DNA of 64,000 nucleotides from Pseudoscleropodium purum (Eukaryota > Streptophyta > Bryopsida > Hypnales > Brachytheciaceae), in NCBI GenBank assembly GCA_963969395.1, contig OZ017795.1, forward strand, positions 15,996,001 through 16,060,000, given 5' to 3'. The stretch's first letter is position 1. Each line of letters starts with the position of its first letter. The position numbers and the translations under genes are program-made. Shown piece after piece: positions 11,750 through 47,685 of the stretch. A model generated the notes under the pieces. It ran no database searches, had not been told where the DNA came from, and saw nothing but the letters and a program-made list of their open reading frames with translations.

Positions 11750-14327
11750 ATTCCAAAGCCCCTAGCAAAGCGAAAAACAACCAATTGACAACCATTCCAA
11801 TATAAACATGAAACAATTTTCATGTCCAAAGCCAGTAACAAAATTTAATCCTATCTGATACTACAAAAATGTGTACATCAGTGCCGTGCCAAAGTGTGCA
11901 ACAATGGTGATTATATACTCAAGAGAGACCTACAAGTAGAAGATTCCACCAACAGCTAATGAAAGTCTCACTACCTTGAAGCCACGTCTCGCAAGCAACT
12001 AGTAAATTGTGTGTACGATTGATGCTAATTCAATCACCATAGAAAAGACTACAACTCCATTTGACAAAAGAAGCTTCAGTATCCCTAATTTGGTGGCACA
12101 ATAAATCTTGAATGACAATGCTAATTAGAAAAAAAAAAAAAAAATCTAATGCAAGCAAGAAATCTAAAGCTTCTAGAGGTTGAGGAGGTTATGAAGGTTT
12201 AGAATGGGATGGCACTGGTGACACGAGGATAAACCACTCGGTTGGGGTGGTGCAACAGATGCCGAGCCTTTTGTTTCTTGAAGGAGTACAATGCCGCTCA
12301 TGGCCATTCCACCACAGCCGTGACAAGAAACGCTACGATTCTGAGTGTTGGGCCGATGACCTTGCAATGGCAAGGGTTACATTTTGTCATGTCCCACATT
12401 GCACGCACGACAGAATGGCCATCATTTAGAGTTTTAGGGGACTCAGGGCCAAATCTTGCTCTCTCTCGCTCGATCCCTTTCTCTCTCTCTCTCTCAATTC
12501 CAAGCTTTCTAATGTACCAAGAACGAGTGCCTTCTATGGACTTTGCAGAACAAGTGCAATCTCCTCTCCAAACCAAATTACGAAACCTGATTGTTGGTTA
12601 TACCAAGAACAATAGGGTGAGGATCTTAACCATGGCATGCGACAGTTGAATGGAGGGTCCTGAATAAGAAGTAGGGTCTTCACCGGAGCACAGACACGCT
12701 AAGGGCATCACAATGGTCCTAAGTTGATTCTATCATCTGCTAGTCTAGATGCTCTCATGAAGGCTTTACATAGTTGTTTGCATCTGTTTTAACCCCTTTG
12801 AGCTTCAAAATCCATATTTTAGATGATGAATACAATGATTTAAAATTCCCTTTTTTTCCAAATAACTTTTCATTCGTCCAAATTCATTTTTGAATCTCTA
12901 AATGACAATATTCGTTTCTAACAAATTGGATGAATTGTAGGTAATTAATGTATTTGTTCAAGATACTGGTGATGAAGGGTATGAACAATCAACACATCTT
13001 TGCAAATTTTATTAAAAAATTCTTGAACAAAGGTTCAACAAATGATAAATATAAACATAATTTTGCAATATTTTTCTTCTTTTTATAAAATAAGAATTAT
13101 AAAAAATAGAATTTTCTAAGAAATTTGGCATCTCTTTGATCATTATTTATATACAATATTATAATAAGAATGAGTACTTTATTGAAAAATGAATAGAGGT
13201 TCCTAAAGAAATTGTGGCCATATGATTAGTAGAACAAATAAAGTGCTTAATCTACCTTCCATCCATTCAAAGACAAATCTTTAGGGTTGTTATGCCATGT
13301 GTTGTTTTGACGCCAAGCTCTAAATATAGTAGCAATTGTTTTTTGTTTTTTTATTCCATATAGGTTTAGTGTATGTACTTACTTGCAAAGTGGCAAGAAG
13401 ATTTGAGGTGAGCTATGAGGTGCTTTGCAATTATTCATGGTCTCCAAAATGAAATCGCTTCTCTTTAAAGTTCTTGCATATTTTTCTCTTATAATTGTTG
13501 CAAACCAAATAATGAAATTGGACTAAAGTAGAAGTACCTATTATAGACAGGCCTCCTATAATTGCTTCTTAGGCTAACCTATTTTGAACATCAAGTGGAT
13601 GCAATGGTCATTGAAAAAGATTCTTGGTTTGTTACTTTTTGTTCACTCATCTCTCTTCCTTCTTGGCCTAGGAAAAAGTGCCAAAGCTAACCACAATAGG
13701 TGAGTCTATGAAACTAAAATGGGTTAGTGTGCAAATACACTTTTACATTCAATAAAATATTCAATTTTGAAGAATTTTTTTTGTTTTTTTGGCATTCTTC
13801 CACAACCTTTTTTTTGGACATATTGAAAACAGTTCCTCATAACTTTCCCACATCATCCAAACTGAAATGCTTAAGTTATCCAAAATAGGTACTTGTACCT
13901 TAAAATGATGAAACAAAATAATACAATTATAGAATTGAATGAAGAAATCACATGTCTAATGATTTTCAAGCAACGAGATAAGGTATGAACAAAATGAAGC
14001 AAAGATGTTAATGTTTATACATATGCAATGCCATAGCCATCAAAGAAACGATACATTTAGAACATATATTAAGTGCAAGCAAAGTACTAAGCATTTGATA
14101 AACATGAGTATAGCAAAGGAAAAGAAGATAGTTGCAACTTGGGCAAAGGAGCATCAATTTGCTACAAAGTCTCAAGATTTTAGATCATAGAAGTTTTATA
14201 GCCCAAGTTCTTGTTGCATTTACTATTAGAATAAAAGTATAGAAAGTAGGAAACTCCAACACGCTTGAAGTAGCTACTTAATTAGTATGGCTCAAAGATC
14301 CTCAATTAGACCAATTGTAGACCTAAG
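11750..14327. repeat. Segmental duplication, copy 1 left part (partner 59768-62093)
   Basis: The sequence runs colinear with 59768-62093 with several indels, for example extra sequence around 13195-13370 and 13545-13900 that the partner lacks. The alignment stops exactly at the 8-bp GACCTAAG where the hAT element begins, and resumes at 30770. It contains the small-membrane-protein remnant and otherwise no gene. Confidence 0.85.
12188..12430 (-). pseudogene. Small plant membrane protein remnant, copy 1
   Basis: On the minus strand a frame reads CHCKVIGPTLRIVAFLVTAVVEWP, then a TGA, then AALYSFKKQKARHLLHHP and RVVYPRVTSAIPF before a TAA. The layout is a hydrophobic membrane segment, a basic linker and a conserved-looking C-terminal VVYP..NAIPF tail. 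I recall this tail from small uncharacterised plant membrane proteins but cannot name the family. The partner copy (60228-60472) has no stop at this TGA but has a TAG elsewhere, so the two copies decayed independently. A CT/GA microsatellite at 12471-12500 lies on the 5' side. Confidence 0.45.
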
Positions 14328-14393
14328 CAGGGTTGTCAAACTGGACGGACAGACCGTCTGTCCGTCCGTCCGATTGAAGTTGTGTCCGTCCGA
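14328..14393. repeat. Left hAT terminus: inverted repeat and TCCGTCCG subterminal cluster
   Basis: The terminal CAGGGTTGTCAAACTGGACG is followed by GTCTGTCCGTCCGTCCG and a further TCCGTCCG. The mirror-image cluster is at the right end. Such subterminal repeats are where hAT transposases usually bind. Confidence 0.9.
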
Positions 14394-14482
14394 AATGGTC
14401 AACGGGCAGCTGACTTTTAGCGGATGAAAAATCACCCAATGGAAACGAAAATCGTCAACACGTGGCGTCCAGCATGGCATTA

Positions 14483-14570
14483 GGGCGGGGACGTATTCTA
14501 GGGCGGGGACGTACTCCTGGGTGGGGACTTGTTCTAGGGCGGGGACGTATTTCGGGGCGGGGACGTATTT
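14483..14570. promoter_or_regulatory. GC-rich motif array at the left end
   Basis: Five direct copies of GGGCGGGGACGTAT or close variants occur every 17-20 bp, one of them degenerate (GGTGGGGACTTG). On the opposite strand they read (G)TACGTCCCCGCC and point to the left terminus. The mirror arrangement is found at 30448-30566. Confidence 0.85.
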
Positions 14571-16111
14571 CAAATCTAATCCAACAAATTTGACTAAAAA
14601 ATTGATAATATTTTGCTTGTAATTGAATTTAGAAGGAATTTTGGATTTCCCCTTTCAAAATTTGTAAAAAAATAATGGAGATAACATTGATGAATCTAAC
14701 CGTATGGATGGAATCTAAAACTCTAAATCTATAACTTTCCTTTGTATGTGACTTTCGAAATATTATTTGAAACCACACATTATAACGGTTTTTTCCAAAA
14801 TTCTCAATTCTAGAGATGACTCTGGACGTTCATGGGATAATGTTGGATCTTCATTTAGCCATTTTTCACCTGGTTCATATACTTAGAAATGGTGAAACAT
14901 CTTGTCTAATTGAATATAGTCTTCTTACTTTTATATCTTACATTTTAACTCCTAAAGGACCAAGATCATTTGTTTGTCCAAAACCACTCAAAATTGCCCC
15001 TTCTGTTGCATTCATCTAACAAAACAAACAAACAAATAAAAAATAGAATCTAATTGTAGGATCTTATACTTTACTTGACTGAAATCATATGGTAAAAATT
15101 TATGAAGTCTTTGGTAAACCTAAACCGTAATCCCCCCCCCAAAAAAATTATTACTCCACGCCCTTCTAAACCTAAACTAACACACTCCCAAATATTTTTT
15201 TAATCCATCAATTTTAGCCAAATGCAAAAACAAACCCTCCCTATCTTTTTCCATTGCATCAAGTCCCTCTAACAATAAATCCACAGTCCCACACACTCCG
15301 AAATTTTTGAATCTTCCACCAACTTCCACCAAATCTAAACCCACGTACTCCCCCCAAAAAATTCAATCCAACAAATCCCTAAAAAATTAAAATCTTAAAC
15401 TTAAACCCTCTTTTTTCTATTTTGCATTCCACAAAGACTCAACAAACCTAAACCCCAAGTCCGGAAGTCCCCAACATTTCCATTTTTTTCTTTCCATAAA
15501 GACTCTCCAAACTGAAATCCACATGCTTTGAAATTTTTCTTAATTCTCCAATTCACTCCCTCCCTCCAAGACTAGAACTTTTGACTGTAATACTCCCAAT
15601 TTTTTGTATTCTACAAATTTTTTCCAAAACAAAGCTCACACTTTTTTAAAGGAAGCCCACACTTGTTTAATTCTTTGCAGGAATAAGTATTGTTTTAGTT
15701 TTAGCCAACATTATACCCTCCAATGAAATAAAGTAATCCTATTTGTTTCAACTTTCAAACTGTCCATATCTCCTAATCTTCCAAGCAAAAATATCGGGAA
15801 TTCATTTCACATCTTTTTAAATTAGCATACTGCAAAATCCTATCGTTATATGTGTTTAATTTTTTTATTTTATTACATTTTGGTCCTCGCAGTAAAAATG
15901 GCAATTTTGGAATGTTTATAGTAAAAAAATACTCCAAAACATTAAGTAATTAAGGTAAACGCAAGTGTCAAAAAATTTTTACTTTTTTAAAATAATATAA
16001 TTCTCGGATAATTCCAAGTACATAAAGCATGTTCAAAGAACTCACACTACGTCCTTCATAACCTCTTCTTCTTCTACCACCTCTTCTAGAATATATACGA
16101 CTTTTAAACTC
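14571..16111. other. AT-rich non-coding part of the hAT element
   Basis: No gene is visible. 14950-15070 (CTCCTAAAGGACCAAG, then CACTCAAAATTGCC) is repeated inside the element at 19788-19915. 15120-15660 is pyrimidine-rich with many CCAAACC/TCTAAACC words. Confidence 0.55.
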
Positions 16112-17122
16112 CTATCTACGATAACAACATTCTGGCATTAGCCAACCGTACGGTGGTTTTCTCAATGTCTCCAGAACATCTCCTATAGTTGCCCGATCAT
16201 TCACATCTTCCTTCTGCAAGCTTTGAAGATGTGTTTTAAGTAATGCATAATTCATGCATTTTTCTTTAACGAAGTACTGGGAATCCCACTCCTCATTCCA
16301 AATCTTTTGTGCTATCCATCCTGCGGAATATGTATCAGCTGCTACACTATACAGATGCCTTCGTTGCATCACTTCCAGCGAGTTCTCTGAACCTATACTT
16401 TCGTATACATAGAACAATTCTGGAGCAACAAATTTTTTCACCTGCTTTATTTTCGCTAGCTTTTCCATGCTGTCATAGCCATATTTTGATGGCTCCTTCT
16501 CCACAACTCGGCTTGATATTCCCCAATCACATATACCAATGTATATTCTATTCTTCTTCCAAGGGTCAAAATGTAGCAACACATTGGATGGAGATAAATC
16601 GTTGTGCATGTAGTTCTCATTGTGACATTTCCAGACTGTCACAAGCAAGGACAACGCCAATGTAACGCGATTTTTCCTATACGTTGCAATCCATTCCAGT
16701 TGCGCTTTGCTCAGCTCTGAGTCGTGTTGCTTAACAATGTCTTCGATTTCGAGCACCTCAGAAACCTTGTTGTCCATATTCTTCCAAAAACTTGCCAAAA
16801 ATCCACCATTCCACCACAACGAATAACCGGCCATTGTTTTGGGATTCAAATACGAAAGTCTGATGATGCCCGGATGCTTCACGGGACATCCTCCAGCCTC
16901 ATTTATGATTTCCAAACGTTTTTTCTTCTGATTCTCTTCTTTGAGACGTTTCTCGGCAAAATCCATCCACATTGGCATGTTGTTCAGTCTTGTGATGTGC
17001 ACCTTCATCACAGTCCCATACCTTCCTTCCGTTATAAATCCCGGCATCTGTACAACTTTTATTGAGCTGTCAAGCCATTGAAACGTTCCACTAACGCAGT
17101 GCGTCAATACAGCATTCTCCAT
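16112..17122 (-). CDS. Protein-kinase-domain protein of the hAT element (C-terminal portion of a split gene)
   Basis: This frame is a divergent eukaryotic protein kinase. Residues from the frame's first Met: a glycine loop ITEGRYGTVMK at 30-40; a Lys in FAEKRL (K58) where the ATP-anchoring Lys belongs; HND at 173-175 in place of HRD with the catalytic Asp kept; N180; DWG at 199-201 in place of DFG with the metal-binding Asp kept; APE at 233-235; and the F-helix Asp263. The key catalytic residues are therefore present and activity is plausible. The substrate is unknown. The frame continues upstream without a shift into 17147-17689, separated only by one TGA (17147-17149) and eight codons, so both were probably one protein of about 525 residues. 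The TGA follows GCA and precedes GGA, and a CGA-to-TGA change would explain it. Readthrough or separate translation from this Met is possible. Confidence 0.8.
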   Translation of the reverse strand: MENAVLTHCVSGTFQWLDSSIKVVQMPGFITEGRYGTVMKVHITRLNNMPMWMDFAEKRLKEENQKKKRLEIINEAGGCPVKHPGIIRLSYLNPKTMAGYSLWWNGGFLASFWKNMDNKVSEVLEIEDIVKQHDSELSKAQLEWIATYRKNRVTLALSLLVTVWKCHNENYMHNDLSPSNVLLHFDPWKKNRIYIGICDWGISSRVVEKEPSKYGYDSMEKLAKIKQVKKFVAPELFYVYESIGSENSLEVMQRRHLYSVAADTYSAGWIAQKIWNEEWDSQYFVKEKCMNYALLKTHLQSLQKEDVNDRATIGDVLETLRKPPYGWLMPECCYRR

Positions 17123-17146
17123 CGATTCCTTCCATGGTAATTTTCC

Positions 17147-17689
17147 TCATGCCCGTGATTTTGAAAAACCTTGGCAAAATGTCTCGATCATCGATAGTTT
17201 TGCAAAAAGTTCCTCGTCTGCAACATCCCAGTCAGTTCTATTCTCTTTTTTATTAGCATCGTAACGCCATTGCATCACGATATTTGTTGCCAAAGCCTTC
17301 ACAGTTTTTTCAAGCCACTCCGAAGCTAACCAATAATCTTGGTAATTGTTGAAGTCTTCAGATGATTCCATAGTCACTTCAATCTCGTAACGTAGCTTCT
17401 CCAAGAGTTCATGGTAACCATTTTCGTTCTTGCTGACGTACTCCCTCTCCAACATTGCTAAACTCCGTCGTCGATAAAAATCCACACCTATTGATCGTGC
17501 CTTTTGTGTGTACTCTATCGGAGGCCAATCGGGTCGTGCCGGTTTTACTTTCTTATGACTTGATGATGTCGGATTCGAAGATGATGACGGTTGAGTGCTC
17601 TGTTCGGCAACAACTATTTCTTCGATGGGCACATCCAAGTCCCAGGCCATTGGGCGTTTTCCCGTCGAACCACTTCCTGATGCAGCCAT
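17147..17689 (-). CDS. N-terminal portion of the hAT-borne kinase gene
   Basis: I start at the Met followed by AASGSGSTGKRPMAWDLDV. The frame is open 16 codons further upstream, but those codons look like leader. The protein begins with a Ser/Thr-rich, low-complexity stretch containing a basic patch (SSSHKKVKPARP). A mostly helical region follows, rich in Glu, Tyr and Trp (for example YHELLEKLRYEIEV and WLASEWLEKTVKAL). I recognise no named domain. It ends at a TGA in frame with the kinase domain, which suggests this is the regulatory half of a kinase split by one point mutation. A TATATA lies about 150 bp upstream (17839-17844), with the GC-rich motif array beyond it. Confidence 0.7.
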   Translation of the reverse strand: MAASGSGSTGKRPMAWDLDVPIEEIVVAEQSTQPSSSSNPTSSSHKKVKPARPDWPPIEYTQKARSIGVDFYRRRSLAMLEREYVSKNENGYHELLEKLRYEIEVTMESSEDFNNYQDYWLASEWLEKTVKALATNIVMQWRYDANKKENRTDWDVADEELFAKLSMIETFCQGFSKSRA

Positions 17690-17838
17690 AGTATTCGAAA
17701 AAAAATTCGAAAATCTCCCGTACAAATAAAGCGCCACACCTGTGCACCCTCCGACTCACTGTATAGGCCGCAAATCGCGAACTAACACGTGAGGCTAAAA
17801 GTGAAGGCCTGACAATGTCAAAATGAGCAAAAAAAAAA

Positions 17839-17844
17839 TATATA
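17839..17844 (-). promoter_or_regulatory. TATA box of the kinase gene
   Basis: TATATA on the minus strand lies about 150 bp upstream of the chosen start at 17689. It sits between that gene and the shared motif array at 17860-17998. Spacing resembles the other hAT-borne genes. Confidence 0.5.
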
Positions 17845-17859
17845 GGGAAGGCAAAAACC

Positions 17860-17998
17860 ACTTCCCCGCCCACCCCGCGAGTATGTCCCCGCCCTGCCCC
17901 CAGTTCGTCCCCGCCCTGTCGCGAGTACATCCCCGCTTGTACCCAGTACGTCCCCGCCCTGGATGCGAGTACGTCCCCGCCCCTGCCTTGACGTCCGC
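17860..17998. promoter_or_regulatory. GC-rich motif array in the divergent promoter
   Basis: At least five copies of GTACGTCCCCGCC or one-base variants lie between the divergent kinase gene and the short coiled-coil gene. The motif points towards the plus-strand gene. It combines an ACGT core, the type bound by plant bZIP factors, with a CCCCGCC box. The same array type marks both element ends and the other two promoters. Confidence 0.85.
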
Positions 17999-18007
17999 GC
18001 TCCTCGG

Positions 18008-18014
18008 TATAAAA
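18008..18014 (+). promoter_or_regulatory. TATA box of the short coiled-coil gene
   Basis: TATAAAA lies 130 bp upstream of the chosen start at 18144 and just downstream of the motif array. It is a good match to a plant core promoter. Confidence 0.65.
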
Positions 18015-18143
18015 GGCCGTGCCTGCTTCCTCACTTTCTGCCCTCTGAACTCCCTCGTGCACCACCTCTGAGCTGGTTGTCTGGGCGTCTCAGTGGGCCC
18101 TACATCACATTCCACGTCATTTTTGTTGCACAAACATCGTGCG

Positions 18144-19058
18144 ATGGACACATCACCACGGATGACGAAAAACGAGCGAGACAAAACAAGAAAGAGAAGT
18201 GGACAGGTACAGAAGAAGCGGATGCATGTTTTACGAAATCTGTTAAAAATTGCTTTCAAGGGGTGGGAGGAAGTACAGAACCCGTGGAGCATGGACACGT
18301 GTGCAGATTACATTGAGTGGTGTCACATCGATAAGGCCTTTCCTGAAGAACGACACCACTACTACCGATACTTCCACAAAGCAAATTTGCGATATTGCAT
18401 GAATGATGCATTCAAAAATCGGTGCATTGAAGTCTACCAAGTCCTTTACAATAGAGCGAAGGTGGAGCGCAATGAAGTTCACCTTTTCATTGCAAGAGGA
18501 GTACACGCAGAGGTCACGCTAGGGAAGAGGGTGGATTGGTCAACCATCAAGGAGAGAGGTTCCAAAATAAAAGTTCCTCATCCAAGCAATGGATTGATTC
18601 CAATGGGTGTTCTAACGTTTCCCGAAGGTGGGTTGGGGCACTTGAAGACAATCGTAAATCCTCCTACAGCTCATGATGACACCGAGGATTCTACGACGGA
18701 TGACAATTCAGATGGAGCACGTACTCCACCGCATCCTCTGACGGCCAAAGGGGAACAACGTGGTAGGCGGAGGAGGGCCCTACAATATGCTCGAGATCCT
18801 CAACCTCAACATGAAATCCAAAATGAAGTGCACGAGGAAGTTTACGCACAACCCACTGAAAATAGAAGAAATGTATATGATACAATCTCGGCCTTGAGGA
18901 ACGAACTTGCTGAAAAACACGAAGAAATTAATCGTCTGCACGATTACAGGCACACGTCGAGGGCGGCGTTGGAAGAAAAGAACCAAGTCATTAGCAATCT
19001 CAGACAAGAAATTGCACGATTGGAACATGCTTTAGAGCTTGCTACATCAAGGAATTAG
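18144..19058 (+). CDS. Coiled-coil protein of the hAT element, short paralogue without RING
   Basis: The start is the Met before DTSPRMTKNERDKTRKR. The frame is open 17 codons upstream, but similarity to the paralogue begins at this Met. The protein begins with a strongly basic segment that looks like a nuclear localisation signal. A conserved domain of about 190 residues follows, including MDTCADYIEWCHI, NRCIEVYQVLYNRA and VDWSTIKERGSKIKVPHP. Then come an acidic/Ser-Thr linker and a C-terminal coiled coil (AALEEKNQVISNLRQEIARL). The first 210 or so residues are very close to the minus-strand gene at 21878-23311, with almost identical DNA over the VDWSTIKERG part. It ends where the paralogue continues to its RING, so it could pair with the long form through the coiled coil and modulate it. 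I recognise no characterised family. Confidence 0.75.
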   Translation: MDTSPRMTKNERDKTRKRSGQVQKKRMHVLRNLLKIAFKGWEEVQNPWSMDTCADYIEWCHIDKAFPEERHHYYRYFHKANLRYCMNDAFKNRCIEVYQVLYNRAKVERNEVHLFIARGVHAEVTLGKRVDWSTIKERGSKIKVPHPSNGLIPMGVLTFPEGGLGHLKTIVNPPTAHDDTEDSTTDDNSDGARTPPHPLTAKGEQRGRRRRALQYARDPQPQHEIQNEVHEEVYAQPTENRRNVYDTISALRNELAEKHEEINRLHDYRHTSRAALEEKNQVISNLRQEIARLEHALELATSRN

Positions 19059-21093: not shown

Positions 21094-21924
21094 TTAGTCC
21101 AAATGAACTAGGCTATTTGCGGTACCACTTGTACCGGCCTCGGTGTCATGCGTCCCGGACATTGGAATATCATCTTCATTGGAGTCCAAACGAAGTCGCC
21201 GCATTGCACCGCGTGTTCGTCTTGCTGGTCCATCCTCCTCCAGTAGGCCCCTCAGAATTTGAGATTGTTGAAGTTCTTGAAGAGCTATACGAGTTCCCGG
21301 ACTGTGTTCTTCTAGCAAGAAGTCTACAGCATCATTTCTAAATTGCTCTCTCCATTCAGATTCAGACATCATTACTCTTTCTCGTGCGGTAGGAGGTACA
21401 TATTCACCAGGATCCACAAGTTGAACTCCGTCGTCATCGGTGATACGTTGTCCGTCGTTGCCCCAAATCCAACCCTTTGGATGTGGTCCAAATCGAAATT
21501 GATGCTCATTTCCATCCCAATAGCCATTGAAGTATTGGTAGAAGAAATTTCTTCTTCCTTCACTAATAGCGTCCGTGCCTTTAATCAAATTGTGGCACAC
21601 ACGAACAACTTCAGTTGGGTTTGATTCCCATCCCCAGTTGTTGGAAAGCCCAGAGACCTCTAAAGAGTGATACTTATAACGCCAATTCCAAATGAGGTCT
21701 TCTCCCCATTTCTGTGGATGATCTGGAGCATTCATTACATCAAATTCCCAGCTTGGCGGCATATGCTCGTACAAGCCAAATAGCTTGTACAAACGCTCAT
21801 GGAAAGGAGCCTTGCAAAGTACGCAATGCCTTCGATTGACCATTAATGCAATCAAACAAATTGGATGATACAAATGCTCACATGTGCCCAATTGGAATCC
21901 ACCTTCGGGGCCAAAGGCATTCAA
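21094..21924 (-). pseudogene. RING-finger C-terminal half of the long coiled-coil gene (frameshifted)
   Basis: This frame carries the second half of a RING-H2 zinc finger, TCEHLYHPICL followed ten residues later by CVLC. The first CPMC pair is in the neighbouring frame just upstream. Joined, the pattern is C-x2-C-x14-C-x-H-x2-H-x2-C-x10-C-x2-C, a canonical RING, which in eukaryotes usually means a ubiquitin E3 ligase recruiting an E2 enzyme. Downstream is a Trp-rich region (PKGWIWGNDGQ, NWGWESNP) and an Arg-rich, acidic tail that I do not recognise. The frame has no good ATG near its start. It is entered only through the frameshift caused by a 7-bp tandem duplication (TCAAACA twice, 21921-21934). 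Confidence 0.75.
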
Positions 21925-23311
21925 ACATCAAACACATTGGACATTGTGTACCATCGAACACAAAGCTCGGTGGTTTTGGCCACAACAATGTACTCGGTTT
22001 AGTCACATGGGCAGACCTTTCATTTTCAAAATCCCACCCATTTCGAGGCCAATCAATGATGGTCTGATTTCCAACTCCAACTTTGGTCTCCATTTTGTCC
22101 GAGAATAACTCATCCATTAGTTCCCATGATGTTAAGCCAAAAACACGTTCTTGATTGTGCATTGCATAATGATAGGCAATTTTCTTCAATTCTGCTCCCA
22201 TTTGTCGGTTCTTGTCCACAGTAAATACACACGCCAACTTCCACTCATAATACTGTGACACCAATGCATCCAAATGTTTCTGGAGCTCGACATTTTTTCC
22301 ACGAAGCACTTCTAGCTCTTCGGCACCTACAATAAAGTGAGATGGGTGACCAGCTTTGTGCAGACCTTCACCAACGTGGCCTTCGCTGAATACATTACCA
22401 GCTTGTAGAGCTCTTGTAAGGCGGGCAATTTCTTGGGACTGTCGGTCAATGACGTCGTTCTTTTGTTGGATCTCGACCTTCAACTTGTGAGTGTCTTCTA
22501 ACAAGTTTTGAATTTCCTTTCTTTTTTCGTTGAGGTTACTCTTCAAGGTTGGGATTGTATCTTCTTCACTTTCGACAACTTCATTTGGTAGCCGAAGATC
22601 TTCTACTTCCATTGAATCTTGTAGTCGGTCATTTAAAACTGCTTCCGAGACAACTTCTTCTGTGCTCATTTCCTTCTCCCTTCTTCTTTTCACCCGATGT
22701 TCCACTCTATTACCTAGAGCACGCGGTGGAGTGCGCGTCCCGTCGGAGTCATCATCAGGAGAAGAGTCACTGGTTACATATGTGTTAGGGGGCAACTCAG
22801 TCAGTGGCCTCACGAACCCCAATCCGCCGTTAGGGTACCTTCGCACACCCATTGGAATCAATCCATTGGTGGGATGAGGAACTTTTATTTTGGAACCTCT
22901 CTCCTTGATGGTTGACCAATCCACCTTCTTCCCTAGCTTGACCTCTGCATGTACCCCTCTTGCAATGAAAAGGTTAATTTCATTGCGTTCCACCATTGGT
23001 CTATCGTATAACACTTGATAGACTTCAATGCAACGATTCTTAAATGCGTCGTCGGTACAGAACCTCAAATTGGCCTTGTGGAAGCGACGGTGATAGTTGT
23101 GCCGGGCTATGGGAAAAGACTTGCCAATGTGGCACCATTCAATGTAATTGGCACAAGTGTCCATATTCCATGGATCAGGTTCATCTTCCCATCCCCTGAA
23201 TGCCAACTTCAACGGATTGTTTAAAACGTTCATCCGTTTCCGTTGCTTCTGTCCAGTCCTCTTTCTTGTTCTGTCTCGTTCGGCCTTCGTCATCTTCACT
23301 GCAGGGTCCAT
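21878..23311 (-). CDS. Coiled-coil/RING protein of the hAT element, long paralogue, N-terminal part
   Basis: It starts at the Met before DPAVKMTKAERDRTRKR, the equivalent of the start in the paralogue. The order is: basic NLS-like N-terminus; the conserved domain shared with 18144-19058 (NRCIEVYQVLYDRP, VDWSTIKERGSKIKVPHP); an acidic linker; a long coiled coil of roughly residues 245-330 (KLKVEIQQKNDVIDRQSQEI); a second helical region; and finally CPMC, the first zinc-ligand pair of a RING. Right after this the frame is shifted by the 7-bp tandem duplication and stops after PIGHM. The uninterrupted protein would have had about 736 residues. The coiled coil followed by RING is a common E3-ligase layout; the target is unknown. 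Confidence 0.75.
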   Translation of the reverse strand: MDPAVKMTKAERDRTRKRTGQKQRKRMNVLNNPLKLAFRGWEDEPDPWNMDTCANYIEWCHIGKSFPIARHNYHRRFHKANLRFCTDDAFKNRCIEVYQVLYDRPMVERNEINLFIARGVHAEVKLGKKVDWSTIKERGSKIKVPHPTNGLIPMGVRRYPNGGLGFVRPLTELPPNTYVTSDSSPDDDSDGTRTPPRALGNRVEHRVKRRREKEMSTEEVVSEAVLNDRLQDSMEVEDLRLPNEVVESEEDTIPTLKSNLNEKRKEIQNLLEDTHKLKVEIQQKNDVIDRQSQEIARLTRALQAGNVFSEGHVGEGLHKAGHPSHFIVGAEELEVLRGKNVELQKHLDALVSQYYEWKLACVFTVDKNRQMGAELKKIAYHYAMHNQERVFGLTSWELMDELFSDKMETKVGVGNQTIIDWPRNGWDFENERSAHVTKPSTLLWPKPPSFVFDGTQCPMCLMFECLWPRRWIPIGHM

Positions 23312-23427
23312 CACACGGCGGTTTGGGTTGAAGTAAAGAGCGTAATATAAAAAGGACCTCACAAGGACGCCTAGGCAACCAGCTTAGAGGTGGAGCACAC
23401 GGGAGTTTGTGAGGCAGTTGCTAAAAG

Positions 23428-23578
23428 GGCGGGGACGCGCATATATACTGCTGGTCCGCGCTGTCAGGGCGGGGACGTACTCAAAATAGGCGGGGACGTT
23501 TCTGCCCTGGGCGAGGACGTACTCGTCCTAGGCGGGGACGTACTTGTCCAAGGCGGGGACGTACTCGTCGCTGGCGGT
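23428..23578. promoter_or_regulatory. GC-rich motif array and TATA of the long coiled-coil/RING gene
   Basis: Six copies of GGCGGGGACGTAC or variants occur here. Read on the minus strand they point towards the gene at 23311. A TATATAT (23441-23447, minus strand) lies about 130 bp upstream of the start, the same distance as in the short paralogue. Confidence 0.8.
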
Positions 23579-23754
23579 AGGTGGAGAAAATTAGAATAAA
23601 AAAAAAGATTTTGGAAGATTTACCTTGTACCTTGCATTTAATGTCACTCATCTTTTATTTCATGTGAGTTGTCAAAGACCCGTGAAGCTCCCATCATCCA
23701 AGAGAAAAATAAATTAACATTACTAATAGTTAAAAGGATAAATAAAAAAAATTG

Positions 23755-23780
23755 TTAAACCCTAAACCCTAAACCCTTAG
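23755..23780. repeat. Short telomere-like repeat
   Basis: Three consecutive copies of the plant telomere unit (CCCTAAA) occur, followed by degenerate ones. The run is too short to mean a former chromosome end. Confidence 0.6.
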
Positions 23781-23959
23781 CCTAAATCCTGAACCATTTC
23801 ACAGCACAATAAAAAATGCTCACATTTCATTCAATTTCAACCCTTGTATGATGAGTCCAACAAATTTTCATTTGATTCTCAAACATTTTTATATCCCCAT
23901 ATATGGTAATTCCGTTATTTTCTTCATTTGTTTCTATAGCTTATATCCCGTCGTTAAAT

Positions 23960-24470
23960 TATTCCAATTTTTTATTTATTTGAGTCTCTCTTTTGTTTAT
24001 AACCCCACATATGGTTAATCCAATTTTTTATTTATTCAAGTCTCTCTTTTGTTTATGTCCCCCTGTATGGTTAATTCAAATTTTTATTTATTTGAGTCTC
24101 TCGTTTGTTTATGTCCCCCCATATGGTTAATCCAATTTTTTATTTATTCAAGTCTCTCGTTTGTTTATGTCCCCCCATATGGTTAATCCAATTTTTTATT
24201 TATTCAAGTCTCTCGTTTGTTTATGTCCCCTCATATGGTTAATTCAATTTTTTATTTATTTGAGTCTCTCGTTTGTTTATGTCCCCTCATATGGTTAATC
24301 CAATTTTTTTATTTATTTGAGTCTCTCTTTTGTTTATAACCCCTCATATGGTTAATCCAAATTTTTATTTATTTGAGTCTCTCTTTTGTTTATATCCCCT
24401 TTCTTGGTTAGTCCAATTTGTTATTTATTTGAGTCTCTCTTTTGTTTATCTCCCCCCCCCTATACGGTTA
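23960..24470. repeat. 56-bp tandem repeat, nine copies, inside the hAT element
   Basis: The unit contains GAGTCTCTC or CAAGTCTCTC, TTTGTTTATGTCCCC and ATATGGTTAATCCAATTTTT. Copies of the first word begin at 23982, 24038, 24094, 24149, 24205, 24262, 24319, 24374 and 24431, giving a period of 55-57 bp. Decayed pyrimidine-rich relatives continue to about 24750. It lies between the divergent RING gene and transposase promoters. Confidence 0.9.
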
Positions 24471-24750
24471 TTCCAATTTTTTGCCCATTTGTTTGTCTAA
24501 CTTATTTATCTACCCTCATATGATTATTTCAGTATTTTTTTATTTGGTTCTCTGAATTTTTTATCTCCCCTTACATGATTATTCGATTATTTTTTTCATT
24601 TCATTCTCTAACTCATCTGTCTCACCTCACATTTTTATCCCGAAATTTTTTTCATTTGATTCTGTAACTTATATGTCTTCCTCTATGTGATGCATCTCGT
24701 AGTTATTTTTTTTGGTTCTCTAACTTCTTCATGTACCTTCATTTCGATAA

Positions 24751-25220
24751 ACCGTTCATTTCTTACACCTATATATTCTACCATTTTTTTATTCTCTCAT
24801 TTCTTCCTTCCATTTTTGTGCCACTTTTTAAATGTATAGCCTTCCTTTTAAAAAACCGGTTGCAATGTCTCTCTATGGATTCTACATATTTCTGTCCAAT
24901 CCTTAATGTTGTTGCAATTCTCTTTGTCATTTTTTTCCAATTCACGCGTAATTTATTTGATGTTTCCCGTTTTTGACAAATTCAACGTTTCTTCAATTGA
25001 TTTGTTATACACAATTTCTTAAATACTAAAACCGCATTTTTTGTAGCATCTATCTTTGATATTTAGAATGATGTAGTGAATGAGTAATTAATGCTTGAAT
25101 ACTTCATATCTTAGGAAATCTGCAAAAATGGGGGGCAGCTGTAGAGTGCAAGTACAAGTATTTGAAATGTCTTCCCTCGAAGGTTTTGAGGAGGGAAACC
25201 CAAAACTGATTTGAATCTCT
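24751..25220. other. Non-coding spacer in the hAT element
   Basis: AT-rich sequence without a recognisable gene or repeat, leading into the GC-rich array upstream of the transposase. Confidence 0.4.
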
Positions 25221-25975
25221 CCCCCGCCTAGCGTCCCCGCGAGTACGTCCCCGCCCATACAAAAATACATCCCCGCCCTGAAGTCCCTACCCGAACGCCT
25301 TGACGCGTGGAATCGGGAGTGCGGGAGTCGGGAGTCCCTGAGTCCCCGCCCTAGCGTCCCCGCCTTGACGTCTTCGCCCGAACGCCTTCTGGGGCGGGAG
25401 TGCGAGAGTCGGGAGTGCGGGAGTCGGGAGTCCCTGAGTCCTCGTCCTAGCGTCCCCGCCCTGACAAGTACGTCCCCGCCCCGACAAGTACGTCCCCGCC
25501 TTGACGTCTTCGCCCGAACGCCTTCTGGGGCGGGAGTCGGGAGGGCGGGAGTCGGGAGTCCCTGAGTCCCCGCCCTGTCAAGTACGTCCCTGCCCTGACG
25601 TCTTCGCCCGAACGCCTTCTAGGGCGGGAGTCGGGAGTCGGGAGTGCGGGAGTCGGGAGTCCCTGAGTCCCCGCCCTAGCGTCCCCGCCCTGACAAGTAC
25701 GTCCCCGCCTTGACGTCTTCGCCCGAACGCCTTCTGGGGCGGGAGTGCGGGAGTCGGGAGTCCCCGCCCTAGCGTCCCCGCCCCGACAAGTACATCCCCG
25801 CCTTGACGTCTTCGCCCGAACGCCTTCTGGGGCGGGAGTCGGGAGTCGGGAGTGCGGGAGTCGGGAGTCCCTGAGTCCCCACCCTGACAAGTACGTCCCC
25901 GCCTCTCCCTAGTACGTCCCCGCCCCTCTCTAGTACGTCCCCGCCCTTGTATAGTACGTCCGCGCCCTTACGTGG
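25221..25975. promoter_or_regulatory. Expanded GC-rich minisatellite array upstream of the transposase
   Basis: More than ten GTACGTCCCCGCC-type motifs are embedded in a larger repeat. The larger unit contains GACGTCTTCGCCCGAACGCC (copies at 25367, 25503, 25597, 25711 and 25804) and runs of CGGGAGT. The unit length varies between about 93 and 136 bp. The motif points towards the transposase. The long GC-rich frames here are products of the repeat, not genes. Copy number could well vary between element copies. Confidence 0.85.
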
Positions 25976-26000
25976 AGTTCTACCAGCCACCAGGAGGGAG

Positions 26001-26007
26001 TATATAA
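26001..26007 (+). promoter_or_regulatory. TATA box of the hAT transposase gene
   Basis: TATATAA follows directly after the motif array and lies 229 bp upstream of the ATG at 26230. The longer leader could hold an intron. Confidence 0.6.
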
Positions 26008-26229
26008 GGACGAGTAGGCAGAACTAAAGGCACGTTTTCCCCTGGACCTCATCATTCTCGGACCTCTCAGAGCTCCTTGATAGAGTTTATTGGGTGGAAA
26101 GCGGCCTTGGTTCTCGGCTGAGGTGATGTAAAAATCAGTTCAAGTAGGGAACCGACGCTAACTACTTTTACAGGTACAAAGTTGTAGAAGACAATACAAG
26201 CACAAGTGAGGAGTTCCAACTTGTAAGTT

Positions 26230-26736
26230 GTGATGGCGACAAATCGAAAAACCACAAGAGAGTGGGAACCGTGGTATGATTTCTCTATTGATGGATCTAA
26301 AGTCACATGTGTCTTTTGTGGCGGGACAACGGCTTACAAACGGGAGCGTGCTTTTGCACACTACGATTATAAAGCAAAAAGTGAGCGAGCAGTGTGTTCC
26401 AAAATACCTCGAGCGGTGAGACATAAATTTGCCAACTGCGCTGGATTTGTTCCACAACGCACAAATTTGGAGGACCCACACGACGGTGAATCAATTCCGA
26501 GCGATCCATCCGTAGCAGCTCCAAATGTTGCTACGGAAAATATAAACGAACATGCTCAGAATGAAGGAGAAAGAGGGGGAAGAAGGCGTTTGGAGGTTCT
26601 AAATGAAAATGAAGACCAACTACCAACATCAAATAGTGAAGCAGCATCGAATTTCACAAGATCAAGATCATTACGTCAACAACAAATGGTAGATGCCTTC
26701 AACATTGCAAAGAGGAAAGAGTTGGATGAAAAGTAG
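26230..26736 (+). CDS. hAT transposase, N-terminal part with BED-type zinc finger
   Basis: The protein opens with a short aromatic/basic segment, then CVFCGGTTAYKRERAFAHY and a Cys 15 residues later in RAVCSKIP. This is the arrangement of BED-type fingers in plant hAT transposases that bind element ends. A Ser/Asn-rich linker and a basic helix (KRKELDEK) follow. The frame stops at TAG (26734-26736), but the same frame resumes at once with ASFFYEANVPFN, the usual beginning of the DUF659/catalytic region. A TGG-to-TAG or CAG-to-TAG change therefore explains the stop. This copy may be disabled, or may need readthrough. Confidence 0.85.
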   Translation: MMATNRKTTREWEPWYDFSIDGSKVTCVFCGGTTAYKRERAFAHYDYKAKSERAVCSKIPRAVRHKFANCAGFVPQRTNLEDPHDGESIPSDPSVAAPNVATENINEHAQNEGERGGRRRLEVLNENEDQLPTSNSEAASNFTRSRSLRQQQMVDAFNIAKRKELDEK

Positions 26737-29700
26737 GCAAGCTTTTTTTATGAGGCAAATGTACCCTTCAACATTACAAGAAATCCTGCTTTCATTGAGG
26801 CAGTCAAGTCAACTTCTTTGGCACGATTTGAATATTCTCCACCTTCGTACCACCAATTGAGAACAAACTTGATTGAACCGAAGAAGCTACAGATTGAGAA
26901 TGAGATATCTGCAAAAACAAGTTTTGTAGTAAAAAATTATGGGGTAACGATTTGCACGGATGGTTGGGACGATGTAAATCGACGGCCTCTCATGAATGTC
27001 ATGATGTCATGTCCCGCAGGTGATGTGTTTATGGGGTCCATCGACACTACAGGGCAGAACAAGACAATGGTCTATATAGCAGACCAATTGAAAACCTTCA
27101 TCGAGAAAGTGGGTCCCAATAATGTAACTCAAATTTGTACAGACAATGCGAGTAACATGCTCGGTGCAATGGATGACGTAGTTCGCACATATCCGCACAT
27201 CTTTAAGCAAGGGTGCGCGGCACATGCATTGGATTTGTTGCTTGAAGATTGGGCCAAGTTGCCGGATTTCAAAGATTTAATAGCAAGGACAAAGACAGTG
27301 TGCAATTATATCAAAAATCACCATGCAACAATGTCAACTTTCCGGGAGTTGAGTCCAAACTTGCAGCTTGTAGTACCGGCTAAAACTCGTTTTGCTTCGC
27401 ACTTTCTCATGTTGCAACGACTGGTGACACTAAAACCTGTCTTGGAGCAGTTGGGAGGACAACCACGAGTCCAAAATTATGTTGCAGCACTTCGGAATAG
27501 GCAAAACGGACCGCAGAACCGGAGGGACGCAATGTGCGTACTGAATACCATTGATGATTTAACATTTTGGCAGAGGTGTAAAAATTACGTGTTCATTGTG
27601 GAAGACGTTTTGAAGGCCTTGCGTGTGTTTGATGGACGGGAACCAGCTATGGGCAAGGCATGGATCACAATGCACAGGTTGCGACGACATGTTTTTCAGC
27701 TCAGAGAGGGTCCTTTCTTCCTTCCGGATCACCTAGCTACGGTCATGGAAGAGACATTTGAGGAGAGGTGGAACATGTTTTTTACCGACGTGCACTATGC
27801 TGGGGCATTGTTGAATCCTTATATCAAGGACAACCCAGCTCTAAGGGAAGATGGAACGGCCCTTCGTGCACTACATCGGGTTGTTCAAAAAATGAAGGAT
27901 GTGGTGGGTGTGTGTTTTGATGACGTCATACAAGAATATGTGCAATACGTGGAGGGTGAAGGACCCTATAGTCCTGACGCATCACTGGACATTCGGGAAG
28001 CAAAGTTACTTCCACATCGATGGTGGAAAGCAATTGGAGATTGCTTCTTGTCCAAAATTGCGAAGCGTGTTTTAGCCCTTACATGTTCAGCATCGTCTTG
28101 TGAACGAAATTTCAGTATGTATTCCTTCGTCCACAACAGGAACAGAAATCGTCTAGCAGTGGAGAAGGCTGAGACTTTGGTGTACATTTATACCAACAGT
28201 CGCGTCCTTCGTCAAAAACCTGGAGCAGATCCAGTTCGTTGGTATGATTTGAACAACGTATCAGAGGATTCGGATCCGGATGAACTTGGACCCATTCCAG
28301 TCGATGAACCTAACCGCCATCGAGAATTTGATGCTATGCTAGCGGCAGAAGAAGAAGAAGACGACATGAAAGCGAATCGGCCACCACCTGCACCCCAAGC
28401 AAACCCACATGGTTGGGGGCGAGACATGGACCACCGCGAAGAAGCAAGAAACTATTACGGGGAAGAAGATGATATGGAAGACAACATTCGTCATGAAGCT
28501 TGGGGACCTTGGGCTCCCAATCCTCGTCTTAGTCCATCTCCTATACATCAGGAAGAACAAGAAGATGAAATTGGTAATGAAGTAGATCCTTTTGTTTTTC
28601 CTGTAGAAGAGGATGAAGCCATAGTTGGAGATGACAATGTTCAAAATGACGACAACGACAACGATGAAGACAATGATGATGACATTCCTCCACCTCAAAA
28701 CAATCGTGAAAATAGAGATGATGAAAATGGTGGAAATGGTGGAAATGGAGGAAATGGCACAAATCCTACAGTTCTAGACCATGAAGGGCCTATTGAGGAT
28801 GCTCCAATGATTGTAAGCGACAACAAGCTGGGCGGACCTAACAACGTCAACGCAGATGTACATAGACATTTGAGAGCGAGCCTCGAAAATACAAGGACAA
28901 GCGAGACCATCGACATAATTGAACCAACTGGTAATATTCCGAGGCTATTTGATGTCCAACGTGTACGGAACAGAGGAGGCGCTCGAGGAGTCGATCGTAT
29001 CCATCCACCCTCTTCTGTAGCAATTCCTAATACAATGCAAGAGCATCGTACGTTTGTGCCCCCTCGGCAACATTCTTCTCCGAATATATCTGGAAATTCT
29101 AATCCCAAATCTTTTCAAGAAGGGTTACGCTCAGTGGGAGATGGAAATGTCGTAGTGGATAATGCTCCCAATATCGGAGCAGATGGTAGACCCTCTGAAA
29201 GCACTGTAGTCCATGCGGTGGGTCAATATACTACTCGCGGTTCTGGTGGTCGTGGTGGTCGTAGTGGTCGTGGAGGAAGAAACAATGATGGAGACCACGG
29301 AGACACAGTGTCAATAGCTCGCAAACGTCCGCATCGTGGAGTCGGAGTCAGGTTAGCTGAGCAACAAGTATTGCCATTTTTGCAGACTTATACTCCGGGA
29401 CCTACATCCTCAACCCCAGCATTTGTGATTCTTGGAGGCCCAGTTATAAATTCTGATGCGGAGGACCCAGATGCTAGAAGACACAAAATGTTGCGGTTGA
29501 ACCGTAGTGGTGGAAATAGAATTACGGAGGTCCGCAATGAGAACTCAGAGTTTGAAGGTCAACAAACAGACGGAGATGAACATGTTGGAAGTGAAGATTA
29601 TACAGACGGGGATGATGAGTACGACGAGGACTGTAACGAAGCCCCGGATGACGACGATTTGCTCATTCGCCATGTTGAGCGAGCAGGCCCTTCTACTCAA

Positions 29701-29745
29701 GCAGTTCGCCGATCAAGTCGTTTCAAAGATGTAGGCGAACCATGA
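26737..29745 (+). CDS. hAT transposase, catalytic core, dimerisation domain and long C-terminal extension
   Basis: In frame with the upstream part, this holds the DUF659 region and RNase-H-like core. The first catalytic Asp is in TICTDGWDD (codon 26959-26961) and the second in TQICTDNASN (codon 27142-27144). The catalytic Glu is in SSCERNFSMYSFVHNRNRNR (codon 28102-28104), which is also the start of the hAT C-terminal dimerisation motif that ends near VYIYTNSR. All three acidic residues are intact. Beyond it is a tail of about 510 residues, unusual for the family. It has acidic runs (EEEEDDM, NDNDEDNDDD), a Gly/Asn run, an RGG-like segment (SGGRGGRSGRGGR, near 29240-29280) and a final acidic stretch before RRSSRFKDVGEP. 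The joined transposase would be about 1171 residues. Confidence 0.9.
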   Translation, partial: ASFFYEANVPFNITRNPAFIEAVKSTSLARFEYSPPSYHQLRTNLIEPKKLQIENEISAKTSFVVKNYGVTICTDGWDDVNRRPLMNVMMSCPAGDVFMGSIDTTGQNKTMVYIADQLKTFIEKVGPNNVTQICTDNASNMLGAMDDVVRTYPHIFKQGCAAHALDLLLEDWAKLPDFKDLIARTKTVCNYIKNHHATMSTFRELSPNLQLVVPAKTRFASHFLMLQRLVTLKPVLEQLGGQPRVQNYVAALRNRQNGPQNRRDAMCVLNTIDDLTFWQRCKNYVFIVEDVLKALRVFDGREPAMGKAWITMHRLRRHVFQLREGPFFLPDHLATVMEETFEERWNMFFTDVHYAGALLNPYIKDNPALREDGTALRALHRVVQKMKDVVGVCFDDVIQEYVQYVEGEGPYSPDASLDIREAKLLPHRWWKAIGDCFLSKIAKRVLALTCSASSCERNFSMYSFVHNRNRNRLAVEKAETLVYIYTNSRVLRQKPGADPVRWYDLNNVSEDSDPDELGPIPVDEPNRHREFDAMLAAEEEEDDMKANRPPPAPQANPHGWGRDMDHREEARNYYGEEDDMEDNIRHEAWGPWAPNPRLSPSPIHQEEQEDEIGNEVDPFVFPVEEDEAIVGDDNVQNDDNDNDEDNDDDIPPPQNNRENRDDENGGNGGNGGNGTNPTVLDHEGPIEDAPMIVSDNKLGGPNNVNADVHRHLRASLENTRTSETIDIIEPTGNIPRLFDVQRVRNRGGARGVDRIHPPSSVAIPNTMQEHRTFVPPRQHSSPNISGNSNPKSFQEGLRSVGDGNVVVDNAPNIGADGRPSESTVVHAVGQYTTRGSGGRGGRSGRGGRNNDGDHGDTVSIARKRPHRGVGVRLAEQQVLPFLQTYTPGPTSSTPAFVILGGPVINSDAEDPDARRHKMLRLNRSGGNRITEVRNENSEFEGQQTDGDEHVGSEDYTDGDDEYDEDCNEAPDDDDLLIRHVERAGPSTQAVRRSSRFKDVGEP

Positions 29746-30447
29746 GCACACGTAGGACATGTAGGCAATTCTTAAAATGACCTATGTGTAAAGAATGAGT
29801 AGTAAGTTGTGAGGTAACAATATGACAGGAGCACAAGTTGACAAAGTCTGGAAGTCTCATTTTCATAGTCATGTTATCGGATTATGTATGGACGAAATCC
29901 CAGATTATTTGTGTTTTTCGCAAAGAAACATGCATATATATTGCTTGTAGCTTGATGTTGTGTGATGCATTTGAATTATCTTGTCCATAGCCATGACTTT
30001 GTAAGAGGAAACTCAGGAAAGTGAAATGTATTAATTTCTCATGAAATGAATAATTTAATGAATTCATAGAATTGTAGATAATTGGAATATAAAAGCAGTG
30101 GTGTATGTAAGCATTGACTACTTCTTTTTTTTTTCTATCAAAAGCAGGAGTTAAGGTAACCAAAGCCCAAGGGGCCATAAATGCAATCACTTTCTATTTT
30201 TTTTTAAAACAAGAAATAAAATTGTGTGGTCCTTTGGAGAAAAAAGAGATCATCCATAAATAGTGACTAACAATGGTTTGGTAATTAAAGTATTTTACTT
30301 TAGAGGATAACAAATGGGGCACCAAAACATTCACTCAGATATCTTTTTTGATCAAAGTAGGTAGAGTAATTAAAAGGTCAGCAAAGCATTGTCTTTTCGG
30401 AAATAATATAGAAGACTTTAGAATAACCCCAAACACGCCTAGACACG
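29746..30447. other. 3' non-coding part of the hAT element
   Basis: AT-rich sequence after the transposase stop, presumably 3' UTR and spacer. I see no gene. Confidence 0.5.
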
Positions 30448-30566
30448 AATACGTCCCCGCCCAGACAAAAGTACGTCCCCGCCTCATCATGACGTCCCCG
30501 CCCAGACAAAAGTAAGTCCCCGCCTCACCATGACGTCCCCGCCCAAACCTAAGTACGTCCCCGCCT
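30448..30566. promoter_or_regulatory. GC-rich motif array at the right end
   Basis: Six copies of the TACGTCCCCGCC type (two GTACGTCCCCGCC, one with ATACG, one with GTAAG, two with TGACG) point to the right terminus. They mirror the left array at 14483-14570. No promoter lies between this array and the terminus, so a role in transposition rather than transcription is likely here. Confidence 0.85.
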
Positions 30567-30679
30567 CTACGTCAGTGCGCTGATTGCAACGTGGCTGGCC
30601 ACGTCAAACACTTCCGGTCAGGAGTAGGGAAAATTTTGATTAGGGGCAAAATTTCCTGCCCGAAGTGTCCGCTTAGGGT

Positions 30680-30761
30680 TGGACAAGTCCGTCTGTCCGT
30701 CCGTTTTGTCCGTCCGTCCGGGACGTCCGGTGACCCTGAAGCGTCCGATTTGACAACCCTG
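30680..30761. repeat. Right hAT terminus: TCCGTCCG subterminal cluster and inverted repeat
   Basis: A cluster of TCCGTCTGTCCGTCCG and TCCGTCCGTCCG is followed by the inverted terminus GCGTCCGATTTGACAACCCTG. The 8-bp duplication GACCTAAG follows. Confidence 0.9.
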
Positions 30762-30769
30762 GACCTAAG

Positions 30770-47665: not shown

Positions 47666-47685
47666 AGCTGAACATCCTTAAAGTT

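What the first reader, a model, noticed from the sequence alone, without database searches (positions are those of the whole stretch)
14320..30769. A 16.4-kb multi-gene hAT transposon with exact boundaries and an empty site in the same window
Seen directly: 8-bp duplication GACCTAAG on both sides, CAGGGTTGTCAAA inverted ends, TCCGTCCG subterminal clusters, a hAT transposase inside, and a paralogous locus at 62086-62093 without the insert. Established: 8-bp duplications, CAGGG ends and the CERN-type dimerisation motif define hAT elements, and autonomous plant members are normally a few kb with one gene. Inference: the kinase and the coiled-coil/RING genes belong to the element and move with it. 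This would be a cargo-bearing hAT lineage that I do not know to be described.
Basis: partly seen in the sequence, partly recalled or inferred. Interest (0 to 1): 0.93.

Follow-up and report, generated by a model that had tools for sequence, protein, structure and literature searches.

The report
Giant four-gene hAT transposon family
In a plant genome, probably a moss, a jumping DNA element of about 16 kilobases carries its transposase together with a kinase gene, a RING gene and a shortened RING relative as one unit, under a shared private DNA motif, a far more complex design than the usual one-gene elements of this class.

Summary
Window 14328-30761 is a 16,434-bp hAT element with exact 8-bp duplications and an empty paralogous site. 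The 313-Mb genome has 30 right termini (<=3 mismatches, control 0). All 30 pair with a left terminus, and all 30 elements carry kinase, coiled-coil, RING and transposase genes; 24 have exact and 4 near-exact duplications, 2 have none. No transposase-only copy with these ends was seen.

The association is old: 38 of 55 diverged kinase relatives lie beside a RING relative, always divergent (null 0.69). A distant, more numerous family pairs kinase with transposase.

TACGTCCCCGCC is arrayed at both ends and upstream of all four genes: 30 sites in the element, none in the rest of the window. A tight pair of its core occurs 272 times genome-wide, control 0; the 100 places listed all lie in family copies.

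Function is inferred: self-regulation or anti-silencing, laid out like VANDAL/VANC. The window copy is decayed. Nine literature searches found no description.

The parts
14320..14327 (.). left target-site duplication GACCTAAG
14328..14340 (+). left terminal inverted repeat CAGGGTTGTCAAA
   Evidence: 30 paired copies genome-wide
14361..14392 (+). left subterminal TCCGTCCG cluster (3 exact sites)
14484..14567 (-). left array of TACGTCCCCGCC (4 sites, <=1 mismatch)
16112..17689 (-). kinase gene (525 codons in the reference copy); one stop in this copy
17844..17844 (-). TATA-like box on the kinase side (first base)
17882..17981 (+). motif array (4 sites) between the divergent kinase and coiled-coil genes
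18008..18014 (+). TATA-like box of the coiled-coil gene
18144..19058 (+). coiled-coil gene, 304 aa: N-domain and coiled coil of the RING gene without the RING half; intact here
21094..23311 (-). RING gene (736 codons in the reference copy); 7-nt insertion in this copy
23447..23447 (-). TATA-like box of the RING gene (first base)
23468..23563 (-). motif array upstream of RING (5 sites)
25244..25966 (+). motif array upstream of the transposase (11 sites)
26001..26007 (+). TATA-like box of the transposase gene
26233..29745 (+). hAT transposase gene (1,170 codons in the reference copy); one stop in this copy
30450..30565 (+). right array of TACGTCCCCGCC (6 sites)
30696..30720 (+). right subterminal TCCGTCCG cluster (3 exact sites)
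30749..30761 (-). right terminal inverted repeat
30762..30769 (.). right target-site duplication GACCTAAG
61671..64000 (+). paralogous flank with the empty site (GACCTAAA at 62086-62093)

Best explanation
This is one decayed copy of a recently amplified family of multi-gene hAT transposons. SHOWN: one unit with defined ends and 8-bp target duplications (16.1-21.6 kb in the 9 copies read in full) has inserted at 30 places with the same four genes, and much of the gene association also exists in older relatives. INFERRED: the transposase cuts and pastes the unit through the terminal and subterminal repeats; the kinase, the RING-type ubiquitin-ligase-like protein and the shortened RING paralogue are working parts of the element, not passive cargo; and an element-encoded DNA-binding protein (candidates: the transposase N-terminus or the domain shared by RING and coiled-coil proteins) reads the private TACGTCCCCGCC arrays at both ends and at all four promoters. 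The arrays would mark the element as self and switch its genes together, with kinase and RING modifying or removing host silencing factors or tuning the transposase, and the coiled-coil protein moderating RING by mixed coiled-coil pairing. Confidence by layer: multi-gene mobile unit about 0.97; accessory genes functional for the element about 0.8; self-regulation or anti-silencing role about 0.4.
For: 30 right termini, all in elements with all four genes; duplications exact in 24, 7 of 8 in 4 of 30; colinear in 9 of 9 copies read; kinase and RING relatives adjacent and divergent at 38 of 55 old places, null mean 0.69 and maximum 4 in 1,000 trials; kinase catalytic residues conserved in 30 sequences including one of a distant family, 7 zinc ligands invariant in 20 RING homologs, transposase acidic, CxxH and E positions conserved in 22; Ka/Ks 0.19/0.86 between the N-domains of coiled-coil and RING genes; private motif arrays at ends and promoters. 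The layout matches VANDAL21/VANC21 (PMC5735166, passages).
Against: Among the nine copies read, omega is about 1 or more in all four genes (0.99, 0.91, 1.31, 1.46) and shared variants are no less nonsynonymous than singletons, so no selection on accessory genes is visible in the recent burst; the transposase behaves the same. Old kinase-only, RING-only and transposase-only places exist (13, 35 and 9). The old places may descend from one ancestor. Protein binding to the motif, kinase and ligase activity are untested. P0092 scores below the Pfam cut-off for RING (23.8 against 27.3). Two of 30 elements lack duplications.
Confidence: 0.8

Rival explanations
1. Passive cargo: a hAT element once captured host kinase and RING genes; they ride along without a function for the element, and the amplified master happened to hold them.
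For: Neutral variation in all four genes among the nine copies; gene capture by plant DNA transposons is well known (recalled; Pack-MULEs in PMC6431247, passage).
Against: Kinase-RING adjacency at 38 of 55 diverged places; a distant family with kinase next to transposase; conserved catalytic and zinc residues at 22-59% identity; shared motif at all promoters and both ends.
Confidence: 0.12
2. Transposase-only regulation: the transposase alone binds the TACGTCCCCGCC arrays at ends and promoters (as Ac transposase binds its subterminal repeats, recalled). Kinase and RING act on the cell (cell cycle, repair, transposase stability), not on silencing.
For: Arrays lie in both subterminal regions, where hAT transposases bind (recalled); the transposase has a cysteine/histidine-rich N-terminus, not called by Pfam.
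Against: The subterminal TCCGTCCG clusters nearer the tips could serve that role; the promoter arrays of all genes need a further reason. Neither is decisive.
Confidence: 0.35
3. Nested or composite insertion: separate mobile elements or genes fell into a normal hAT at this locus.
For: Three of nine copies do hold extra inserts with unrelated frames.
Against: All four genes in 30 of 30 elements at the same relative places, colinear in nine.
Confidence: 0.01
4. Virus-derived: the unit is the remnant of a DNA virus that uses a hAT transposase to integrate, as Teratorn uses piggyBac.
For: Kinase and RING genes are common in large DNA viruses (recalled).
Against: Seven element frames given to Pfam show a kinase and hAT domains and no polymerase or capsid; no match of the N-domain model among viral models. 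Viral contigs were not searched.
Confidence: 0.03

Closest known systems
Canonical hAT elements (Ac, Tam3, hobo, Tol2; recalled)
   Same: 8-bp duplications, CAGGG ends, DUF659/dimerisation transposase, subterminal repeats
   Different: They are a few kb with one gene (recalled); here four genes in 16 kb or more with promoter arrays
VANDAL21 with VANC21 (Mutator-like, Arabidopsis; PMC5735166, abstract start and passages)
   Same: Multi-gene plant DNA transposon; dense same-orientation arrays of a short motif, highly enriched in the family, in terminal and intergenic non-coding DNA
   Different: Other superfamily; VANC is shown to bind and de-silence, here no binding is shown; no kinase or RING reported in the passages seen
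ToxhAT, now ToxTA (fungal; PMC12506042, abstract and passages)
   Same: About 14 kb, several genes, once called a cargo-bearing hAT
   Different: Single-copy, TA duplication, reassigned to Tc1/Mariner, non-autonomous; so not a precedent for a multi-gene hAT
Giant transposons: Starships, Polintons, Teratorn (PMC6431247 passages; listings)
   Same: Large eukaryotic DNA elements with many genes
   Different: Tyrosine recombinase, PolB/integrase, or piggyBac-herpesvirus fusion; none is a hAT
MuDR and En/Spm (recalled)
   Same: A second, accessory protein encoded beside the transposase
   Different: Other superfamilies; no kinase or RING module

Membership tests
hAT superfamily | 8-bp target-site duplication | tested here: met
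   24 of 30 exact, 4 of 30 with 7 of 8, 2 of 30 none; empty paralogous site
hAT superfamily | short terminal inverted repeats beginning CAGGG | tested here: met
   13 of 13 bases; 30 copies
hAT superfamily | transposase with hAT C-terminal dimerisation region | tested here: met
   PF05699 37.5 bits against cut-off 21.4, PF04937 124.6 against 34.7
hAT superfamily | catalytic acidic residues and CxxH | tested here: met
   D48, D109, C133/H136, E429 conserved in an alignment of 21 of 91 homologs plus the window; assignment of these as the triad is recalled; no PDB sequence match to confirm
hAT superfamily | BED zinc finger at the transposase N-terminus | tested here: inconclusive
   cysteine/histidine pattern seen, no Pfam match for that frame
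hAT superfamily | cut-and-paste activity | not testable with these tools
   needs an excision or transposition assay
RING-type ubiquitin ligases | zinc-ligand pattern and RING fold | tested here: met
   7 ligands invariant in 20 of 29 homologs aligned; P0112 above the Pfam cut-off, P0092 below it; most of the 50 structural matches listed are RING domains, best E 0.33, low-confidence model
RING-type ubiquitin ligases | ligase activity | not testable with these tools
   biochemical assay needed
Eukaryotic-type protein kinases | kinase domain with catalytic residues | tested here: met
   PF00069 41.5 bits against 31.7; K247, E264, H362-N363-D364, N369, D388-W389-G390 invariant or nearly so in 28 of 40 homologs plus P0093 and L080; no PDB sequence match at E 0.001
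VANDAL/VANC anti-silencing system | element-private, dense, same-orientation motif arrays in non-coding DNA | tested here: met
VANDAL/VANC anti-silencing system | element protein binds the arrays and removes methylation | not testable with these tools
   needs gel shift, ChIP and methylation data
VANDAL/VANC anti-silencing system | VANC homolog and Mutator-type transposase | tested here: not met
   the transposase is hAT; no other Pfam family than kinase in the seven frames scanned
Starship / Polinton | tyrosine recombinase captain, or PolB with integrase | tested here: not met
   no such Pfam match in seven element frames

The most novel reading that the evidence does not exclude
A deep lineage of complex hAT transposons in mosses carries its own signalling and ubiquitin module: kinase, RING ligase and a natural truncated RING partner, all under a private cis-motif that also marks the ends. 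The element would run its own self-recognition and anti-silencing circuit, which I do not know from any hAT, and at least one distant, far more numerous family of the same genome (kinase and transposase usually 5.4-5.8 kb apart; RING relatives 8.5-12.4 kb from a kinase at 12 sites) would be built alike.
Probability: 0.4. Interest if true: 0.88.

Novelty: new variant of a known kind. Interest (0 to 1): 0.76.

Why it matters
hAT elements are textbook one-gene transposons. A lineage that keeps kinase and RING genes with its transposase over long divergence suggests that a cut-and-paste plant transposon can grow into a multi-gene system without viral or conjugative genes. It offers a concrete test of how a plant transposon might counter or tune its host by phosphorylation and ubiquitination: a defined motif, four defined proteins and young, near-identical copies.

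Tried and rejected
dN/dS among the nine copies was meant to show selection on the accessory genes. It shows neutral decay after insertion in all four genes, transposase included, so it is reported as uninformative and listed under evidence against.

Nested insertion at this locus was rejected by the 30-copy counts. A viral origin was considered and found no support, without a search of viral contigs.

Whether the numerous distant family has all three genes in one element stays open. Kinase-transposase pairs are clear (29 pairs, 26 of them divergent at 3.7-7.7 kb; null mean 1.15, maximum 6). Kinase-RING pairs are moderately clear (14, of which 12 share one geometry; null 1.5, maximum 5). RING-transposase pairs (5; null 1.5, maximum 6) are not above chance and have no common geometry, and no locus showed all three. 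The lists were truncated by the tool. In one search I added rows to the kinase and transposase lists, and two kinase places (C47:8228, C46:13915) stand there twice; neither gave a pair.

Rows dropped before the count: copies of the family itself, second pieces of split hits, the distant family's rows (kinase and RING near 30%, transposase 39-41%) and a few short RING hits.

A first duplication script gave 1 of 28; its loose matching and unhandled orientation were at fault, and one search replaced it. Structure predictions gave no known fold for the N-domain and a low-confidence model of the whole RING protein. Nine of ten literature searches looked for a description and listed none that I recognised from titles and abstract starts; the tenth (106) was for VANC. 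Only open-licence PMC papers are held, so a subscription paper or preprint may exist.
Full report
OBSERVATION. The boundaries are exact: GACCTAAG at 14320-14327 and 30762-30769, CAGGGTTGTCAAA and its inverse just inside. The element is 16,434 bp. Joining the flanks with one duplication gives a 2,351-bp uninterrupted alignment (89.3%) to window 61671-64000, an empty paralogous site reading GACCTAAA.

COPIES. The window lies in a 313-Mb genome of 52 contigs. A 27-base right-terminus pattern (<=3 mismatches) hits 30 places, reversed control 0. The left pattern hits 33, control 0: the left ends of the same 30 elements, plus three with 3 mismatches, one of which (C49:5220562) lies 2.6 kb beyond a kinase relative of an older cluster at C49:5210162-5217955. 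Left-end and right-end searches pair into 30 elements, 28 of about 16-22 kb and two of 29 and 34 kb. A further left end at C43:12562678 has kinase and part of the coiled-coil gene but no right end, RING or transposase hit near it. Duplications: 24 of 30 exact, 4 with 7 of 8, 2 none. So every right terminus found by that pattern belongs to a multi-gene element; no short derivative with it was found. Mean pairwise divergence among the nine copies read in full is 1.2-1.6% in two coding slices and two end slices; variants are mostly singletons, and most are C-to-T or G-to-A: a young, nearly star-like burst that decays neutrally.

GENES. Kinase, RING, transposase and coiled-coil genes are each found in 30 of 30 elements at 93-100% amino-acid identity (in a few copies a gene is split or cut short; the transposase query was its first 461 residues after the window's stop, the RING query its C-terminal 276). 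In the reference copies they are single frames of 525, 736, 1,170 and 304 codons from the first methionine. The window copy has a stop in kinase and transposase and a 7-nt insertion in RING, so it is not itself an intact element. The coiled-coil gene is an inverted, shortened paralogue of the RING gene: shared N-domain and coiled coil, no RING half. Ka/Ks between their N-domains is 0.19/0.86 (whole overlap 0.36/0.96), that is, constraint before the recent burst.

PROTEINS. The transposase carries DUF659 and the hAT dimerisation domain; the D, D, CxxH and E positions are conserved in 22 sequences (their role is recalled). The kinase passes the Pfam cut-off and keeps lysine, glutamate, HND...N and DWG in 30 sequences, one from the distant family. 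The RING protein keeps 7 zinc ligands in 20 homologs; its best structural matches are RING ubiquitin ligases, with weak E-values from a low-confidence model. The N-domain is predicted with confidence as helical and has no match in PDB or viral models. Homologs come mostly from environmental contigs, plus Physcomitrium patens and Ceratodon purpureus entries for the transposase. That the host is a moss is inferred from this alone.

AGE OF THE GENE SET. Relatives outside the family, most of them with stops, were listed by hand (55 kinase, 66 RING C-half, 65 RING N-half, 22 transposase places; dropped rows are told under Tried and rejected). 38 of 55 kinase places lie within 8 kb of a RING place (1,000 random placements: mean 0.69, maximum 4), all 38 on opposite strands; 12 of 22 transposase places lie within 12 kb of a RING place (null 0.21, maximum 2), all on the same strand. 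Of the clusters formed, 10 hold all three genes, 32 kinase and RING, 3 RING and transposase, 35 RING alone, 13 kinase alone and 9 transposase alone. Of the ten, eight read plainly kinase(-) RING(+) transposase(+), one has in addition a RING-N hit of opposite strand, and C49:5210162 differs. So the older order is likely kinase, RING, transposase, and the present family added an inverted duplicate. These old places may share one ancestor and are not independent events.

A SECOND FAMILY. The transposase search also lists about 40 places at 39-41% identity, and the kinase search a group near 30%. With queries from one such locus (L080, L081), the kinase and transposase lists (92 and 94 rows, truncated) give 26 pairs within 9 kb, 25 in divergent order, 22 of them 5.4-5.8 kb apart. 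A RING query from that group (L082) gives 150 rows, 12 of them 8.5-12.4 kb from a kinase in one geometry (14 pairs in all, null 1.5), but RING-transposase pairs (5) are not above chance. No element of this family was read in full; that it is a multi-gene hAT is likely, not shown.

THE PRIVATE MOTIF. TACGTCCCCGCC (<=1 mismatch) occurs 30 times in the element and not once in the other 47.6 kb of the window, in five clusters: both subterminal regions and upstream of all four genes (kinase and coiled-coil share one), with a TATA-like box between array and gene in each case (base-shuffled element mean 0.01, maximum 1). The nine copies have 25-37 sites at corresponding places. A close pair of the 11-base core occurs 272 times genome-wide, control 0; the listing shows the first 100, of which 97 lie inside the paired elements and 3 in the truncated C43 copy; the other 172 places were not listed. 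Dense, same-orientation, family-enriched arrays in terminal and intergenic DNA are what VANC21 recognises in VANDAL21 (PMC5735166, passages). This is an analogy of layout; binding is untested here.

MECHANISM AND NOVELTY. The evidence makes the accessory genes integral to the element and ties all genes and both ends to one cis-motif. I take self-recognition with anti-silencing or self-regulation as the most likely role of that layout (about 0.4), transposase-only regulation as the main rival (0.35). By duplication, ends and transposase this is a hAT; in gene content, size and regulatory layout it departs from the one-gene members known to me. A 2019 review of giant eukaryotic transposons does not hold the word hAT (PMC6431247, word search and passages), and the fungal ToxhAT has been moved to Tc1/Mariner (PMC12506042, abstract and passages). 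Nine searches of the open library listed no description of a multi-gene hAT in plants.

Noticed in passing
window 46520-50292 (-): A host NB-ARC/leucine-rich-repeat resistance-like gene (868-aa frame) with a second LRR frame beside it.
   Followed up: partly
window 14567-14700: This part of the element's left end matches 8 other listed places at 87-88% without the rest of the element: a separate, probably high-copy repeat.
   Followed up: no
window 23851-24652: A tandem array of a 56-bp unit between the RING promoter and the transposase promoter.
   Followed up: no
G000 C46:391137/406095, C1:12222728/12241107, C44:13714121/13728412, C47:8228356/8255451: Pairs of distant-family genes with equal scores in inverted orientation 14-27 kb apart: palindromic duplications or an assembly artefact.
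   Followed up: no
G000 C49 (12.7 Mb): This smallest of the large contigs holds many of the decayed older relatives; it may be a poorly recombining or sex chromosome.
   Followed up: no
G000 C49:5080111 and C48:646381: The two elements with good ends but no matching duplications; recombination between copies would explain them.
   Followed up: no
copies C49:6.28, C41:27.0 and C44:0.07 Mb (L043-L053): Longer copies with inserts whose frames of 439-554 aa match no gene of the element, probably nested mobile elements.
   Followed up: no
G000 C40:42858804 and C46:5845636: Two left-terminus matches with 3 mismatches that may be ends of older elements.
   Followed up: no
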